From: a virus
DNA length: 23,296 nt
Virus record (IMG/VR): IMGVR_UViG_3300034093_003668
Location: 1-23,296 of that record
Strand: one strand, 5' to 3'
Of this stretch, positions 5,004 to 21,210 are shown in pieces. The notes under the pieces were generated by a model that was given only the letters and a program-made list of their open reading frames with translations, was not told the origin of the DNA and searched no databases. The translations under genes and the position numbers were made by a program. How positions within the stretch are numbered: position 1 is the first letter of the stretch; every line of letters starts with the position of its first letter.

Positions 5004-5444
5004 TTAAATTTTTACGTTAAGTTCTCGTTCTAAATCACGTTTTTTAATCGAATCTCGTTTATCGTGAAGCTTTTTACCTCTGCATAGTGCTATTTCAATT
5101 TTTATTAAACCTTTGTCGGTAATAATAACACTAATTGGTACTATTGTCAACCCTTTTTGCTCTACATTTTCATTTAATTTTATTATTTCTTTTTTGTTCA
5201 ACAATAATTTCCTTAACCTGGTTGGTTCATGATTCGTATGAATGCCACTTTGTTTATATTCAGATATATTCATACCCTTAATAAACAATTCATCATTTTT
5301 GATGTAACAATACCCCTCAGAGATTGATACCTTATGATTACGTATTGATTTTACTTCACTACCAATTAGCTTGATACCAGCCGTTAGTTTATCAATAAAC
5401 TCATATTCAAATGAGGCTTTCTTATTTCGTGTTATAACTTCCAT
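5004..5444 (-). CDS. smpB: SmpB, SsrA-binding protein
   Basis: SmpB (146 aa) binds tmRNA and the ribosome A site to rescue ribosomes stalled on broken mRNA. The family pattern is clear: NKKASFEYEF at the N-terminus, GIKLIGSEVKSIR near residue 25, NHEPTRLRKLLLNKKE near 80, KGLTIVPISV near 105 and the basic tail GKKLHDKRDSIKKRDLERE, which enters the mRNA channel. A longer frame to 5480 would read through the promoter at 5457-5487, so I take the ATG at 5444. It is first in an operon with the sigma factor. No standard tmRNA gene was found in the window; it may use the host tmRNA or the odd RNA at 18765-18914. Confidence 0.95.
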   Translation of the reverse strand: MEVITRNKKASFEYEFIDKLTAGIKLIGSEVKSIRNHKVSISEGYCYIKNDELFIKGMNISEYKQSGIHTNHEPTRLRKLLLNKKEIIKLNENVEQKGLTIVPISVIITDKGLIKIEIALCRGKKLHDKRDSIKKRDLERELNVKI

Positions 5445-5456
5445 AATTAATTTTGA

Positions 5457-5487
5457 CAAAGGTAAGGATAATAAAGACATTATCCAA
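5457..5487 (-). promoter_or_regulatory. Bacteroidota-type promoter for smpB-sigma
   Basis: Minus strand TTG (5485-5487), 20 nt, TACCTTTG (5464-5457), 12 nt before the smpB ATG. Confidence 0.75.
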
Positions 5488-6847: not shown

Positions 6848-7891
6848 ATGATGAGAATTATGACATTTGAGAATATCAATAGATTAAGTAGTATGTACTA
6901 CTTAAATAAAGCAATTAATGAATCTAAATTGCTTGTCGAATCATACCCAAATGTTAATTCTTTATTATTAGAAGCTGATGATGATTCAGCATCTTATGAA
7001 TGGGATTTTGTTAATAATAAATTCTATGATAGAGTAAATAATATTGAAACTGATATTAAAAAATCAGCATCATATGTTAGAACAGCTGAACAAGGTATAG
7101 ATTTCATTAAGACATTAGTTGCTAAAGTTGCTGAATTACCAGATAAATTAAAATCTCGTGTTGTTAAGGTAGCAATAGCATCAATGGTATTAACAATGGG
7201 TTATAATCAATTGGTTGATGTTGACAGCAAAGTAGATGCTTTACCTAAAAACAATGTAGTAACGATGGTTGGTGACCTATTAGATAATGCTATAACTAAA
7301 AAAGAAGTACCACAAAAAGCCGAAAAACCTGTAGTAAAAGAAAAGTTTTCAAATAAAATAATTGATTTATTAAAAACTCATGAAGGTATTGGTGGTAAAC
7401 CAGTACTTACCGCTTATAATATTGGTGACGGTGCATATACAATTGGGTACGGTCACGCTGTATTTAAGGATATTTCTAGAGGTGATAATAGTAGTAGTTA
7501 TGATTTCTTAGTATCATACGATGAGTATGAAAAAATGAAACAAAGAGGTGAAAAGGTAACCATAACACCAGAACAAGCTGAACAATTATTAAAAGATGAT
7601 GTTAAAATAGCTGCTGAAGGTTTAGATAGATTGTTGAATGAATGGAAAGCTGATGGTGTTAACCCTAAAATAACTCAACCTATGTATGATGCTATGGTTT
7701 CAATGATTTATAATATGGGTGTTACCACATTTAGAAAAAGTGAATTTATTCAATTAGTAAAACGTGGTAAATTTAAACAAGCTGCTGAAGCAATTAAAAG
7801 CACCAGCAGCCAAATGTTTAGAAAATATCCAGGATTAATAGTTAGAAGAGGTGATGAGTCTCAAACATTCACAGGTAATTACCCAACGTAA
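6848..7891 (+). CDS. GH24 (T4-type) lysozyme with long N-terminal region
   Basis: The C-terminal half is a T4-lysozyme-type muramidase: catalytic glutamate E179 in LKTHEG, then AYTIGYGHA (197-204), ITPEQAEQLLKDD, and a final helical part with RRGDES. It cleaves glycan strands of peptidoglycan. At 347 aa it is about twice the usual length. The first 45 residues contain SLLLE-ADD, a good match to the LxE/IxE cleavage sites of T4-type prohead proteases, followed by a helical region with a hydrophobic segment near 104-120. This may be a virion-packaged lysozyme. It is one of only two plus-strand genes and lies between the two halves of RNase R, overlapping the end of the catalytic half by 13 nt. 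ATGs at 6848, 6851 and 6860 are all possible; 6860 would leave 12 nt after the ATATTTATAA motif at 6838-6847. Confidence 0.9.
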   Translation: MMRIMTFENINRLSSMYYLNKAINESKLLVESYPNVNSLLLEADDDSASYEWDFVNNKFYDRVNNIETDIKKSASYVRTAEQGIDFIKTLVAKVAELPDKLKSRVVKVAIASMVLTMGYNQLVDVDSKVDALPKNNVVTMVGDLLDNAITKKEVPQKAEKPVVKEKFSNKIIDLLKTHEGIGGKPVLTAYNIGDGAYTIGYGHAVFKDISRGDNSSSYDFLVSYDEYEKMKQRGEKVTITPEQAEQLLKDDVKIAAEGLDRLLNEWKADGVNPKITQPMYDAMVSMIYNMGVTTFRKSEFIQLVKRGKFKQAAEAIKSTSSQMFRKYPGLIVRRGDESQTFTGNYPT

Positions 7892-9417
7892 CCATCGTTA
7901 CCCAATACACCACTAATTATTCTATGGAATATTAAATCAGGATATCTTCTGATTGGGCTAGTTGTATGCATATAAAACTTAACACCTAAACCATAATGCC
8001 CTATATTTTTAGTTTGATAATTAGCTTTGGTCATACATCTAACTACTAAATTATTAATTATATTTTCTTCTGGTGTATCTTTAACTTCTTTAAGTAACCC
8101 ATTTAATTTATCCTTAATCTTATTATCATCAGATAAGTCTAATTTATAACCAATCAATTCTATAAATGTTTTTAGTGATTCTAATCTAGTTGGGTCTGGT
8201 TCATCATGTGTTCTATGCAATGTCACAACACCTTTTTTTGTTACGTATTCACAAACTTGTCTGTTTGTTAAAACCATAAATTCCTCAATCAACCAATTTG
8301 ATTCTTTTTGCTCAGTAAAATAAACACCAAGTGGGTTTCCATTTAAATCTAAATCAAACTTAACTTCAGAACCTCTAAATTTTAATGAATTTTTATCACT
8401 TCTAATTTTTCTTATCTTACTAGCATATTTATGTAAATCTAATATCGCTCTTTTTAAGTCTTTATTATAGATATCACCACCATAAATTACTTTTTGAACT
8501 TCACCGTATGTTAATCGATAATTTGAATTGATTATACCACGACAAAACTTTTCTTTAATTACTTTACCATTTTGGTCAAGTGTGAATATAAATGAATAAA
8601 CTAATTTATCAGTATGTGGGTTAAGTGAGCAAAGATTATTACTTAATTTTTCTGGTAACATCGGTACAACTCTATCAACTAAATAAACCGATGTACCACG
8701 TTTATATGCCTCATCATCTATAGCTGTATTTGGTTTTACATAATAGGATACATCCGCAATATGAACAGCAACTTCAATATTACCATCAACCCATTGTACT
8801 GATAAGGCATCATCTAAATCTTTAGCTGTTTCACCATCAATAGTAAAAGTTAATATGTCACGCATATCTAATCTTTTAGCTATTTCTTTTTCTGAAATAA
8901 CATCTGATATTAATTCAGACTCATTAATCACATTTTGTTTAAATTCATATGGTAGATTATATTCTTCCAATATACTATGAATTTCAACATCATTATTACC
9001 TGATTGACCTAATACTCTAATTACTTCACCATTAGGGTTTTTCTGATTATCACCCCAAGTTGTCATTTTCACAACAACCTTTTCACCATTAGATGCACCC
9101 ATTGTTTTATTTAATGGGATGAATATATCAATATTCATTCGTTTATTATCTGGTATTAGAAAAGCATGCTTTAATGATATTTGCATAGTACCAACGAACT
9201 CAGTCTTGAATCGTTCTACAATCTCAATTACCTTACCTTCAAATTGACCATTATCAGTTTTGGTCAATTCAACTTTAACTATATCTAAATGCAATGCTTT
9301 GTTTACACTACCTTTATTGATATGTATACCCTTTTTTATATCTTGGTTTGTAACATAACCTGAACCGAATCCCGTAAGACCAATTTCACCAGTTACAATA
9401 TCTCCTTTTTTAAACAT
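7879..9417 (-). CDS. RNase R-like exoribonuclease, catalytic part without S1
   Basis: A 3'-5' exoribonuclease of the RNase II/R family. The N-terminal cold-shock-like domains cover about residues 1-150 and the RNB domain follows. The four metal-binding aspartates are present with the right spacing: D194, D200, D202, D203 in TFTIDGETAKDLDDAL. Other family signatures are VAVHIADVSYYV, TSVYLVDRVVPMLPEKLSN and HTTSPIRRYPDLIFHR. The protein stops just after this last motif (512 aa), where normal RNase R continues into the tail helix and S1 domain now encoded at 6399-6782. In bacteria RNase R degrades nonstop mRNAs during tmRNA-SmpB rescue, which fits the nearby smpB. I take the ATG at 9417. Confidence 0.92.
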   Translation of the reverse strand: MFKKGDIVTGEIGLTGFGSGYVTNQDIKKGIHINKGSVNKALHLDIVKVELTKTDNGQFEGKVIEIVERFKTEFVGTMQISLKHAFLIPDNKRMNIDIFIPLNKTMGASNGEKVVVKMTTWGDNQKNPNGEVIRVLGQSGNNDVEIHSILEEYNLPYEFKQNVINESELISDVISEKEIAKRLDMRDILTFTIDGETAKDLDDALSVQWVDGNIEVAVHIADVSYYVKPNTAIDDEAYKRGTSVYLVDRVVPMLPEKLSNNLCSLNPHTDKLVYSFIFTLDQNGKVIKEKFCRGIINSNYRLTYGEVQKVIYGGDIYNKDLKRAILDLHKYASKIRKIRSDKNSLKFRGSEVKFDLDLNGNPLGVYFTEQKESNWLIEEFMVLTNRQVCEYVTKKGVVTLHRTHDEPDPTRLESLKTFIELIGYKLDLSDDNKIKDKLNGLLKEVKDTPEENIINNLVVRCMTKANYQTKNIGHYGLGVKFYMHTTSPIRRYPDLIFHRIISGVLGNDGYVG

Positions 9418-9433
9418 CAATTTTTATTTTTTA

Positions 9434-16349: not shown

Positions 16350-16498
16350 TATTGATTATTTTCTTCGTTTGTTAGTTCATCAAGTTGTTGATGAAGTTTT
16401 TTAACGTATAATTCTAATTGAGGTGTTGTCTGTGCTAACCCCTCATAGAACTTTATAAGATTTTTAATATCTTCAATTAATCTTTCGTTACTATCCAT
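16349..16498 (-). CDS. Small coiled-coil protein, 49 aa
   Basis: MDSNERLIEDIKNLIKFYEG followed by a second helix (LELYVKKLHQQLDELTNEE), giving a short helical hairpin or coiled coil. It shares one base with the preceding and with the following gene (TAATG on both sides), which is strong evidence of a real, co-translated gene. Function unknown. Confidence 0.6.
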   Translation of the reverse strand: MDSNERLIEDIKNLIKFYEGLAQTTPQLELYVKKLHQQLDELTNEENNQ

Positions 16499-16926
16499 TA
16501 CACAATAGAGTCAGTATTTGTTAGTAAGTCTTTAACCATTTGAGATAATACTTTACCATCATATTGACCAGCATAGTTTTCACTAAAATGAGCCATAATT
16601 TTACCCATATCTTTAGGTGAATTATACCCCTTTAATTGTCTAAGTAATGAAAATTGAAAGTACATATCATCCAAAGTCATTTGTTTTGGCATATACTTTT
16701 CAAGTACAGCAACTTCTAATTGGTCACCACCTGTTTCAATAATACCATCAATTGATTTTTTAACTAATTTAACAATATCCGCATCTGATAACTCAATCTT
16801 ACCATTTGAAGATTGCTCACCCCTTTGGATTTCACCTTTTAATACTCTTAAGACTTTTAATGTAATTGTGTCTTTCGCTTTCATTGCAGTAACTAAATCT
16901 ACACTGATTTGTGATTGTAATCCCAT
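16498..16926 (-). CDS. YqeY-like protein (GatB/YqeY domain)
   Basis: A 142-aa helical protein matching stand-alone YqeY proteins: an N-terminal KDTITLKVLRVLKGEIQRGE segment, DADIVKLVKKSIDG in the middle, then EVAVLEKYMPKQMTLDDM and DMGKIMAHFSENYAGQYDGK near the C-terminus. The domain occurs in the tail of GatB, where it contacts tRNA in amidotransferase reactions; the role of free YqeY is unclear. A tRNA-related role fits this phage's tRNA cluster but is inference. Confidence 0.85.
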   Translation of the reverse strand: MGLQSQISVDLVTAMKAKDTITLKVLRVLKGEIQRGEQSSNGKIELSDADIVKLVKKSIDGIIETGGDQLEVAVLEKYMPKQMTLDDMYFQFSLLRQLKGYNSPKDMGKIMAHFSENYAGQYDGKVLSQMVKDLLTNTDSIV

Positions 16927-18185: not shown

Positions 18186-18276
18186 TGGTGAATGTGGTGG
18201 GAATCGAACCCACGGTGGAGAATTAACTCACCAGATTAAGAGTCTGGACCGTTCGCCTAGCTACGGATACACATTC
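18186..18276 (-). tRNA. Type II tRNA with anticodon CTT (Lys codon AAG)
   Basis: A 7-bp acceptor stem GAATGTG/CACATTC, discriminator A and encoded CCA. The anticodon stem CCAGA/TCTGG has loop CTCTTAA. The D stem is only 3 bp (CCG/CGG), and a 17-nt variable region can form an arm (GAG..CTC), as in Leu, Ser and Tyr tRNAs. Lys tRNAs normally have short variable loops, so the body and anticodon disagree. It is the last tRNA of the leftward cluster. Confidence 0.85.
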
Positions 18277-18283
18277 AATTTAG

Positions 18284-18356
18284 TGCGCCTGGAGGGCCTT
18301 GAACCCTCTACCTTCCCGTTAAAAGCGGGAAGCCCGTCCACATGAGCTTCAGGCGC
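18284..18356 (-). tRNA. tRNA-Lys(TTT), first copy
   Basis: Acceptor GCGCCTG/CAGGCGC, anticodon stem TCCCG/CGGGA with loop CTTTTAA, T arm GAGGG-TTCAAGG-CCCTC, discriminator A, no encoded CCA. The T-arm and acceptor are perfect. Confidence 0.93.
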
Positions 18357-18391
18357 ATAACATAGCCATTTATTGTGTCTATGTGTCTGTG

Positions 18392-18464
18392 TGCGCCCGA
18401 CAGGGTTTGAACCTGTGACTCGTAAATTAAAAGTTTACTACTCTACCAACTGAGTTACGAGCGC
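18392..18464 (-). tRNA. tRNA-Lys(TTT), second copy
   Basis: Acceptor GCGCTCG/CGGGCGC (one G-U), anticodon stem GTAAA/TTTAC with loop CTTTTAA, T arm ACAGG-TTCAAAC-CCTGT, discriminator A, no encoded CCA. It has the same anticodon as the neighbour but a different body, so it is not a recent duplicate. Confidence 0.93.
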
Positions 18465-18764: not shown

Positions 18765-18914
18765 TGGGGCTGGGGGGAATCGAACCTAGGTTACCCTATC
18801 TACTTCGCTTCAATGATTTGTTTGTCGACCAACGCCTCATATTCACTTTTTGACCTTAGCTGCTATAGCACCGTCATCCAGGACGGGTCGGTTCACCTCA
18901 CCGCAAGCAACCCC
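18765..18914 (-). ncRNA. Unusual 150-nt tRNA-like RNA
   Basis: GGGGTTG at the 5' end pairs with CAGCCCC at the 3' end (7 bp, one G-U), and GGTTCGATTCC near the 3' end looks like a T arm, although only two of five T-stem pairs hold. Inside are a D-like hairpin (CGGT/ACCG), a 5-bp hairpin CCGTC-CTGGAT-GACGG with a 6-nt loop, and a palindrome TGCTATAGCA in the variable-arm position. About 75 nt extra then precede the T arm. It could be a decayed or interrupted tRNA, or a compact tmRNA-like molecule. The latter is suggested by the phage smpB, but I see no tag reading frame. Confidence 0.35.
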
Positions 18915-18919
18915 ATGTG

Positions 18920-18991
18920 AGCAGACGGCCAGAATCGAACTGGCATCCTCGATTTGGTAAACCGATGCACTAACCGTTGTGCTACGCCCGC
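18920..18991 (-). tRNA. tRNA-Gly-like, anticodon reads ACC
   Basis: Acceptor GCGGGCG/CGTCTGC with two G-U pairs, discriminator T, D arm GCAC/GTGC, anticodon stem TCGGT/ATCGA with loop TTACCAA, T arm GCCAG-TTCGATT-CTGGC. The acceptor start and T73 fit glycine. An A at position 34 is very unusual for bacterial Gly tRNAs, so the decoding assignment is uncertain. Confidence 0.75.
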
Positions 18992-19344: not shown

Positions 19345-19424
19345 GGCCGATGGAGGGACTCGAACCCCCGATGTTTGTGTTCTTCCTTACAAGGGAAGTG
19401 CTGTCGCCACTGAGCCACATCGGC
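19345..19424 (-). tRNA. tRNA-Thr(TGT)
   Basis: Acceptor GCCGATG/CATCGGC, anticodon stem CTTCC/GGAAG with loop CTTGTAA, T arm GGGGG-TTCGAGT-CCCTC. The variable loop is long (about 12 nt) and the discriminator is C, both slightly unusual. No encoded CCA. Confidence 0.88.
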
Positions 19425-19757: not shown

Positions 19758-20402
19758 TTATTTTCTTCCTTTAACCCATCTTTCATTTAGATAGGTTTCA
19801 AGCTCTTCTTTCTTAATTTTCTTATTAATACTATCTTTAGTTATCCAACATGTACCGTACTGTGAATTATTTTCACCAATTCCAGCACCTTTTTTAGCTT
19901 CACTCATCTTTTGTTTAGTTTCATCTGAATGTTGTTTACCTTTGAAATTATTTTCATTGTTTTTAAGATATCTTTTAACACCATTAGATACTGATTTTCG
20001 GTATTCTTTTGTTTGTTTAGCTTTGGTTATACTTATTTTTCTTTTTTCACTGTCACTAAAATTTTTAGAACCAACTAATAAAAATTTTAGTCTATGTTCT
20101 TCATTAACAAAACCACCAGTCCCACCTAATTTTAAATTCATACAGTTTTTATCTATAATCATTTCTGGTGTGATTGCTTTTATTTCTGCTTCAATCAACA
20201 ATTCTCTTGTATCAAAGAATTCTAGTATTTCCTTCTTATGATTATCAACACCATACTTGCGTATACTATATCTTAATCGTTTCCCACTACCCATATAACC
20301 ATCTTCTAAGTTAATGGTGCTGTGCATACCTATGTAATATCTACCAGTTATTAAACAAGTAGTCTTGTATAAGTAATGTATTGTTTTCGGTTTCCTCGCC
20401 AT
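19758..20402 (-). CDS. GIY-YIG homing endonuclease with NUMOD3 motifs
   Basis: A 214-aa protein. The N-terminal GIY-YIG domain has HYLYKTT for GIY, RYYIGMHS for YIG (residues 21-28) and a catalytic glutamate in LLIEAE near residue 71. The C-terminal half contains two NUMOD3-like DNA-binding repeats, around residues 100-125 and again 155-172 (KQHSDETKQKMSEAKKG). Such T4 Seg-type enzymes cut DNA lacking them and spread by repair. It sits between tRNA-Gln and tRNA-Pro, a common position for free-standing homing nucleases, and is not inside an intron. Confidence 0.93.
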   Translation of the reverse strand: MARKPKTIHYLYKTTCLITGRYYIGMHSTINLEDGYMGSGKRLRYSIRKYGVDNHKKEILEFFDTRELLIEAEIKAITPEMIIDKNCMNLKLGGTGGFVNEEHRLKFLLVGSKNFSDSEKRKISITKAKQTKEYRKSVSNGVKRYLKNNENNFKGKQHSDETKQKMSEAKKGAGIGENNSQYGTCWITKDSINKKIKKEELETYLNERWVKGRK

Positions 20403-21132: not shown

Positions 21133-21137
21133 ATATG

Positions 21138-21210
21138 TTCACCATAAGGGACTTCAACCCTCATCTCCACTCCCAAACGGAATAGTGCACTTACTTTGTG
21201 CTAATGGTAA
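21138..21210 (-). tRNA. Degenerate tRNA-like gene, possibly Asn (GTT)
   Basis: A 7-bp acceptor TTACCAT/ATGGTGA, D arm GCAC/GTGC and T arm GAGGG-TTGAAGT-CCCTT fit a 73-nt tRNA. The T loop has TTG instead of TTC, and the anticodon arm pairs poorly with C at position 33, so the anticodon (perhaps GTT) is doubtful. It is probably a decaying gene, or one that uses host modification. Confidence 0.5.

What the first reader, a model, noticed from the sequence alone, without database searches (positions are those of the whole stretch)
18186..18276. Lys anticodon on a type II tRNA body
A tRNA with 3-bp D stem and long variable arm (Leu/Ser/Tyr style) but a Lys CTT loop. Its aminoacylation is unclear: A73 and TT in the anticodon fit LysRS, the body fits LeuRS. 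If charged with another amino acid it would recode AAG.
Basis: seen in the sequence. Interest (0 to 1): 0.55.

Follow-up and report, generated by a model that had tools for sequence, protein, structure and literature searches.

The report
Phage lysine tRNA with long arm
A virus of bacteria carries a lysine tRNA built on a long-armed body that bacteria normally keep for leucine, serine and tyrosine; the same odd design turns up in many unrelated phages, it most likely still carries lysine, and its shape may help it survive host defences that cut lysine tRNA.

Summary
In detail: window 18276..18186 (minus) is an intact tRNA (7/5/5-bp arms, A73, CCA) with CTT anticodon and a 17-nt variable arm. 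It is not a one-off: I parsed 109 distinct long-armed YTT tRNAs from viral contigs and found the class in isolated phages of Caulobacter, Mesorhizobium, Rhodobacter, Ruegeria and Xanthomonas. Long-armed Asn, Thr, Met, Ile, Trp, Cys, Gln and Pro tRNAs occur too, and their acceptor-end identity bases follow the anticodon, not the body. In phage tRNAs the 3' spacer of the variable stem is mostly 1 nt for Ser, 2 for Leu, 3 for Tyr and 4 for long-armed Lys: a separate register, which this tRNA has. AAG codons align with Lys in a relative, 61 of 74. So recoding is not supported and 'body fits LeuRS' fails. Most likely it is a class-switched tRNA-Lys charged with lysine; resistance to tRNA-Lys-cutting defences is the best guess at why. 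Neither charging nor resistance is shown. Ten paper searches showed no report of the class.

The parts
18186..18276 (-). class-switched (type II) tRNA-Lys(CUU), whole gene with encoded CCA
   Evidence: sequence, ARAGORN, own parser, conserved in L034, L036, L050, L070, L107
18270..18276 (-). acceptor stem 5' strand GAATGTG
   Evidence: pairs 7 of 7 with 18190-18196
18248..18269 (-). D region, 22 nt, 3-bp stem CCG/CGG, A14 G15, G18 G19
   Evidence: 18 of 109 long-armed Lys tRNAs have a 22-nt D region
18231..18247 (-). anticodon arm CCAGA-CTCTTAA-TCTGG, anticodon CTT at 18238-18240
18214..18230 (-). long variable arm U-GAG-UUAAUU-CUC-CACC: 3-bp stem, 1 nt 5' and 4 nt 3' unpaired (register 4), C48
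18197..18213 (-). T arm GTGGG-TTCGATT-CCCAC
18186..18189 (-). A73 and encoded CCA end
18283..18356 (-). ordinary type I tRNA-Lys(TTT) next to it
18391..18464 (-). second type I tRNA-Lys(TTT)
21137..21210 (-). third type I tRNA-Lys(TTT); 4 of the 12 tRNAs called in the window are Lys
19345..19424 (-). tRNA-Thr(TGT) with a 12-nt variable region, a second class-switched tRNA of this window

Best explanation
It is a working phage tRNA-Lys that reads AAG and is charged with lysine by the host LysRS, built on a type II body. SHOWN: intact, conserved, one of a class spread over many phages; its variable arm is in a register of its own (4-nt 3' spacer) apart from Ser (1), Leu (2) and Tyr (3); in other class-switched phage tRNAs the acceptor identity bases match the anticodon; AAG means Lys in this phage's genes. 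INFERRED: LysRS reads U35, U36 and A73 and tolerates the long arm, while the odd register keeps SerRS, LeuRS and TyrRS off. INFERRED, weaker: the changed body is kept because host defences that cut tRNA-Lys (PrrC, the AriB nuclease of PARIS and similar) read more than the anticodon, so that this tRNA goes on supplying Lys-tRNA after host tRNA-Lys is cut.
For: Family: 76 of 102 stretches and 68 of 92 new stretches hold a parsed type II Lys tRNA; 109 distinct sequences. Isolates. Own register: all three pairs form with a 4-nt spacer in 33 of 50 clusters (10 of 53 with 3, 3 of 53 with 2, 4 of 53 with 1); Ser 59 of 83 with 1, Leu 81 of 95 with 2, Tyr 27 of 42 with 3; pairing 0.786 against at most 0.519 in 200 shuffles. 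Not Ser: no G73 among 109 (80 A, 29 T). Identity follows the anticodon in 110 non-Lys class-switched tRNAs: summed log-likelihood ratio against L/S/Y +298 versus at most -59 in 2000 label shuffles; e.g. Cys U73 4/4, Trp G73 7/7, Asn G73 15/16, His C73 2/2, Pro C1-G72 6/6, Thr G1-C72 and C2-G71 14/14. AAG = Lys. Lys identity is anticodon plus A73, and U35 amber suppressors insert Lys (PMC9976931, passages). Phage tRNA-Lys rescues from PrrC (PMC11555353, passages); AriB cuts Lys(UUU), Thr(UGU), Asn(GUU) and reads anticodon stem, D loop and more (PMC12409363, passages).
Against: For Lys itself the acceptor bases do not decide: Lys beats L/S/Y in only 37 of 109 (mean log ratio -0.43), because Lys, Leu and Tyr share A73 and G1-C72. 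29 of 109 type II Lys tRNAs have T73, against 4 of 133 type I, which standard LysRS should dislike (this tRNA has A73). 31 of 109 have no clear variable stem. In a sample anchored on tRNA-Tyr 0 of 35 distinct Lys tRNAs were type II, so the class is a minority. The anticodon stem keeps U39 and C40, so it lacks the U39A change by which T5 tRNA-Lys resists AriB. No nuclease, host or infection data exist for this phage.
Confidence: 0.6

Rival explanations
1. Recoding or ambiguous decoding, as in nematode nev-tRNAs: the type II body is charged with Leu (or Ser) and inserts it at AAG.
For: Nev-tRNAs are class II bodies with class I anticodons, charged with leucine (PMC4033280, passages). A73 and G1-C72 suit LeuRS.
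Against: C48 against U48 in 163 of 164 phage Leu; spacer 4 against 2; no G73 for Ser. AAG aligns with Lys 61 of 74 and 63 of 75. Class-switched tRNAs of other isotypes keep the identity bases of their anticodon.
Confidence: 0.06
2. It descends from a tRNA-Tyr by anticodon change and is still charged, at least partly, with Tyr.
For: Tyr is the nearest in variable-arm register (3 against 4) and shares A73 and G1-C72; nearest Tyr body similarity 0.66, about equal to Ser 0.65, Leu 0.64 and type I Lys 0.68.
Against: G34 and A36 of Tyr are gone; the nearest bodies are other type II Lys (0.81, 0.79) and a type II Asn with G73 and T1-A72 (0.72); the spacer differs; AAG aligns with Lys.
Confidence: 0.12
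3. Lys-charged, but the long arm is a neutral relic: phage tRNA arrays drift in class because host synthetases other than SerRS and TyrRS ignore the variable arm, and the tRNA simply supplies codons.
For: The reverse switch exists: 21 of 74 distinct Leu tRNAs in the Tyr-anchored phage sample are type I, whereas all 52 Ser and 58 Tyr are type II (Tyr was searched for as type II). AAG is used 86 times against 492 AAA.
Against: The Lys variable stem is paired, covaries and sits mostly in one register, which drift does not predict. Class switches lean to U36 anticodons, 15 of 226 against 6 of 331.
Confidence: 0.3
4. A dead tRNA gene or a decoy that is never charged.
For: Just under the Rfam cut-off; a class-switched tRNA-Asn of Cellulophaga phi4:1 is annotated as pseudo; no promoter signal above shuffles.
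Against: All stems intact with compensatory change, encoded CCA, kept in five related contigs and across phages of many hosts.
Confidence: 0.04

Closest known systems
Nematode nev-tRNAs (Hamashima et al. 2012; read here through PMC4033280, passages)
   Same: class II body with a class I anticodon, many copies
   Different: [quoted passage not shown] this one has C48 and a 4-nt spacer, and AAG reads as Lys
Phage tRNA-Lys that counter PrrC or PARIS (SP15, T5; PMC11555353, PMC12409363, passages)
   Same: phage-encoded tRNA-Lys for a host whose own may be cut
   Different: T5 resists through changes round the cut site (U39A, A41C); here the whole body class differs and U39 is kept. No paper seen describes a body switch
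Bacterial tRNA-Tyr
   Same: type II, A73, G1-C72
   Different: anticodon CUU, 3' spacer 4 instead of 3
Bacterial tRNA-Lys
   Same: anticodon, A73, U35 U36
   Different: 17-nt structured variable arm instead of 4-5 nt, 3-bp D stem

Membership tests
tRNA (RF00005) | score at or over the gathering cut-off of 29 bits | tested here: not met
   28.3 bits; not listed. The model is 71 positions long, built on short variable loops
tRNA (RF00005) | complete cloverleaf with T33, TTC loop, CCA | tested here: met
bacterial tRNA-Lys | anticodon U35 U36 and A73 | tested here: met
   rule from PMC9976931
bacterial tRNA-Lys | class I variable loop of 4-5 nt | tested here: not met
   17 nt with a 3-bp stem
bacterial tRNA-Lys | charged by LysRS | not testable with these tools
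   needs aminoacylation assay
bacterial tRNA-Lys | AAG codes for Lys in the genes served | tested here: met
   61 of 74 and 63 of 75 AAG sites
tRNA-Leu (type II) / nev-tRNA | U48 and 2-nt 3' spacer of the variable stem, as in phage Leu | tested here: not met
   C48, spacer 4
tRNA-Ser | G73 and 1-nt 3' spacer | tested here: not met
   A73, spacer 4
tRNA-Tyr | G34 U35 A36 and 3-nt spacer | tested here: not met
   C34 U35 U36, spacer 4
phage anti-defence tRNA | T5-type change U39A at the AriB site | tested here: not met
   U39 kept (change described in PMC12409363)
phage anti-defence tRNA | rescues infection from a tRNA-Lys nuclease | not testable with these tools
   needs plaque or cleavage assay

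The most novel reading that the evidence does not exclude
Phages have made a fourth variable-arm class of tRNA. Next to Ser (spacer 1), Leu (2) and Tyr (3) they use a 4-nt register that keeps all three long-arm synthetases off, which lets them put Lys (and Asn, partly Thr) on a type II body and so hide these tRNAs from host nucleases that read the class I shape. Shape, not only the anticodon loop, would then be at stake in the arms race over tRNA.
Probability: 0.3. Interest if true: 0.85.

Novelty: new variant of a known kind. Interest (0 to 1): 0.6.

Why it matters
Textbooks tie the long variable arm in bacteria to Leu, Ser and Tyr. Phages break this rule in both directions (long-armed Lys, Asn, Thr, Met; short-armed Leu) while mostly keeping identity bases that fit the anticodon. 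That gives a natural test of which synthetases really need the arm, warns that annotation tools may call such tRNAs 'pseudo' or miss their ends, and makes the open question of why phages carry tRNAs testable: does the body shape protect against tRNA-Lys nucleases? Cultured phages with the class exist (Caulobacter, Ruegeria, Rhodobacter).

Tried and rejected
Minimum-energy folding alone: z -0.51, no help. First estimate of how rare the class is in cells: the genome-contig scan gave 80 stretches, of which 2 hold real type II Lys tRNAs; but the control showed that the type I version of that pattern occurs in only 3 of 395 Bacteroidota genomes, so the scan is a weak test. A looser pattern finds type I in 109 of 118 Bacteroidota genomes; its type II version gave 80 matches in 45 of 118 genomes, near the level of the reversed-pattern control, and 20 matches in 16 of 120 Pseudomonadota. 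I checked 50 loci (30 of the 80 and all 20): only the already known Thalassospira place is a tRNA. The other 50 Bacteroidota matches were not checked. (That the two groups are Bacteroidota and Pseudomonadota follows from the record titles of L151 and L167.) The two cellular places: L164 is a MAG contig with phage-type genes; L167 is a tRNA array beside AbiEii and a T5orf172 gene, origin not settled. Acceptor-base classification for Lys: uninformative. Promoter scan: no more than shuffles. Own tRNA parser: rows with score under 47 or fewer than 5 anticodon-stem pairs were dropped before the counts; duplicates were merged except in the tables. Samples were chosen for type II Lys and for type I Lys, so Lys fractions there mean nothing; one search is anchored on Tyr. 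One paper search returned nothing.

Full report
WHAT IS THERE. The window is a 23,296-base virus record. Relatives of the tRNA lie in uncultured phages of 634-636 kb, LR745206.1 and LR756504.1. On the minus strand, 18276 to 18186, lies a complete tRNA gene: GAATGTG TA.T.CCG.TAGCTAGGCGAA.CGG.T CCAGA CTCTTAA TCTGG TGAGTTAATTCTCCACC GTGGG TTCGATT CCCAC CACATTC A CCA. ARAGORN agrees on the isotype but cuts the 5' end; Rfam's tRNA model scores 28.3 against a cut-off of 29.

IT IS REAL AND KEPT. The gene is identical or nearly so in L034, L036, L050 and L070, and present with a compensatory acceptor change in L107, whose neighbourhood is 77% identical in DNA.

IT IS A CLASS, NOT A FREAK. A pattern for a long-armed YTT tRNA in viral contigs gave 102 stretches, of which 76 hold a tRNA that my parser accepts; a second pattern (stopped at its limit) added 68 of 92 new loci. 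Merged, there are 109 distinct type II Lys tRNAs. Named isolates have it: CcrBL9, Cp1R7A-A1 (two), RcXuper, vB_RpoS-V10, Xanthomonas phage X1; Pseudomonas phage OMKO1 and Cellulophaga phi4:1 have a long-armed Asn. It is a minority: in loci chosen by a tRNA-Tyr pattern 0 of 35 distinct Lys tRNAs were type II, against Ile(TAT) 5 of 8, Asn 5 of 44, Thr(TGT) 3 of 29, Cys 2 of 20. In cellular genomes I found it at two places only, with the limits on sensitivity given under Tried and rejected.

WHAT IS IT CHARGED WITH? Three lines. (a) Other class-switched phage tRNAs: their N73, 1-72 and 2-71 follow the anticodon. Cys U73 4/4, Trp G73 7/7, Asn G73 15/16, His C73 2/2, Pro C1-G72 6/6, Thr G1-C72 with C2-G71 14/14, Gln U1-A72 5/6; Met has a mismatch at 1-72 in 7 of 12, as initiators do (that these are the usual bacterial identity bases is partly recalled, and partly seen as the majority among type I tRNAs of the same phages). 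Against shuffled labels the signal is large (+298 versus at most -59; 110 tRNAs). Results against: Ile 7 of 15, Arg 1 of 4, Glu 1 of 3, Phe 0 of 2 and Lys 37 of 109 preferred their own isotype over L/S/Y. (b) The variable arm. In phage tRNAs the number of unpaired nt between variable stem and T stem is mostly 1 in Ser, 2 in Leu, 3 in Tyr, and 4 in type II Lys (clusters at 75% identity). PMC9976931 (passages) names the unpaired bases of the arm and the 15-48 pair among what class II recognition depends on. This tRNA has spacer 4 and C48. (c) AAG in the genes: Lys in 61 of 74 and 63 of 75 aligned codons against L467, over 4,565 codons in 25 genes at 74.5% identity (a smaller first run is). So the genes treat AAG as Lys. 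None of this measures charging; LysRS acceptance of the long arm is inferred.

ORIGIN. By body (variable arm and anticodon left out) the nearest to this tRNA, beside the copy in L036, are type II Lys of other phages (0.81, 0.79) and, as first of another isotype, a type II Asn (0.72) with T1-A72 and G73; nearest Tyr 0.66, Ser 0.65, Leu 0.64, type I Lys 0.68. Among the 109, the nearest label other than type II Lys is type I Lys in 38, type II Asn in 23, Tyr and Ser 8 each. A single source is not shown; several origins are likely.

WHY. Lys makes up 4 of the 12 tRNAs called here. Phage tRNA-Lys overcomes PrrC (PMC11555353, passages). AriB of PARIS cuts Lys(UUU), Thr(UGU) and, less, Asn(GUU), and reads the D loop and other parts beyond the anticodon stem (PMC12409363, passages). 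Class-switched tRNAs lean to U36 anticodons: 15 of 226 against 6 of 331, and 12 of 290 against 3 of 267 in the set anchored on type I Lys, whose Lys rows inflate the 290 (duplicates not merged). The overlap Lys, Thr, Asn is suggestive, but Ile(TAT) and Met also switch and are not known to me as AriB targets. The evasion idea is a hypothesis; the tRNA keeps U39, so it does not use the T5 solution. The paper on anticodon-loop changes in phage tRNAs (PMC10264068, passages) has no hit for 'variable'.

NOVELTY. Ten paper searches and text searches inside seven papers showed no type II tRNA-Lys in phages; closed-access work was not searched. Class II tRNAs with class I anticodons are known as nev-tRNAs, of which one was shown to take leucine. 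So: a new variant of a known kind.

Noticed in passing
window 18770-18916, minus: tRNA-like stretch with a 7-bp acceptor (GGGGTTG/CAGCCCC), possible GGA (Ser) anticodon and a very long insert where the variable arm would be; T stem poorly paired. Not called by ARAGORN or Rfam. Decayed, or carrying an insert?
   Followed up: partly
window 18920-18991, minus: tRNA-Gly with anticodon ACC (A34), unusual for bacteria (recalled)
   Followed up: no
window 5004-5480 and 7879-9420, minus: SmpB and an RNase R/II-type RNB protein in one phage: parts of trans-translation; no tmRNA called in the window. L038 from another phage has a tmRNA
   Followed up: no
window 19758-20402, minus: NUMOD3-bearing ORF, probably a homing endonuclease, inside the tRNA array; similar DNA in Escherichia and Acinetobacter phages
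   Followed up: no
loci (e.g. L476, L490, L495): Reverse switch: 21 of 74 distinct phage Leu tRNAs have short (type I) variable loops, while all 52 Ser stay long
   Followed up: partly
e.g. L219:5588, L449:3497, L460:4172: Initiator-like tRNA-Met with mismatched 1-72 and long variable arms
   Followed up: partly
L044, L046, L055, L588, L589, L167 and others: 29 of 109 type II Lys tRNAs have T73 against 4 of 133 type I; several lie in phages or genomes of alphaproteobacteria, perhaps because their LysRS is of class I (recalled), for which A73 matters little (PMC9976931)
   Followed up: partly
L001 14436-14520, minus: Match to tRNA-Sec (47.4 bits, cut-off 47) in a 634-kb phage
   Followed up: no
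window 16498-16926, minus: YqeY-like protein near the tRNA array, with relatives in other huge phages
   Followed up: no
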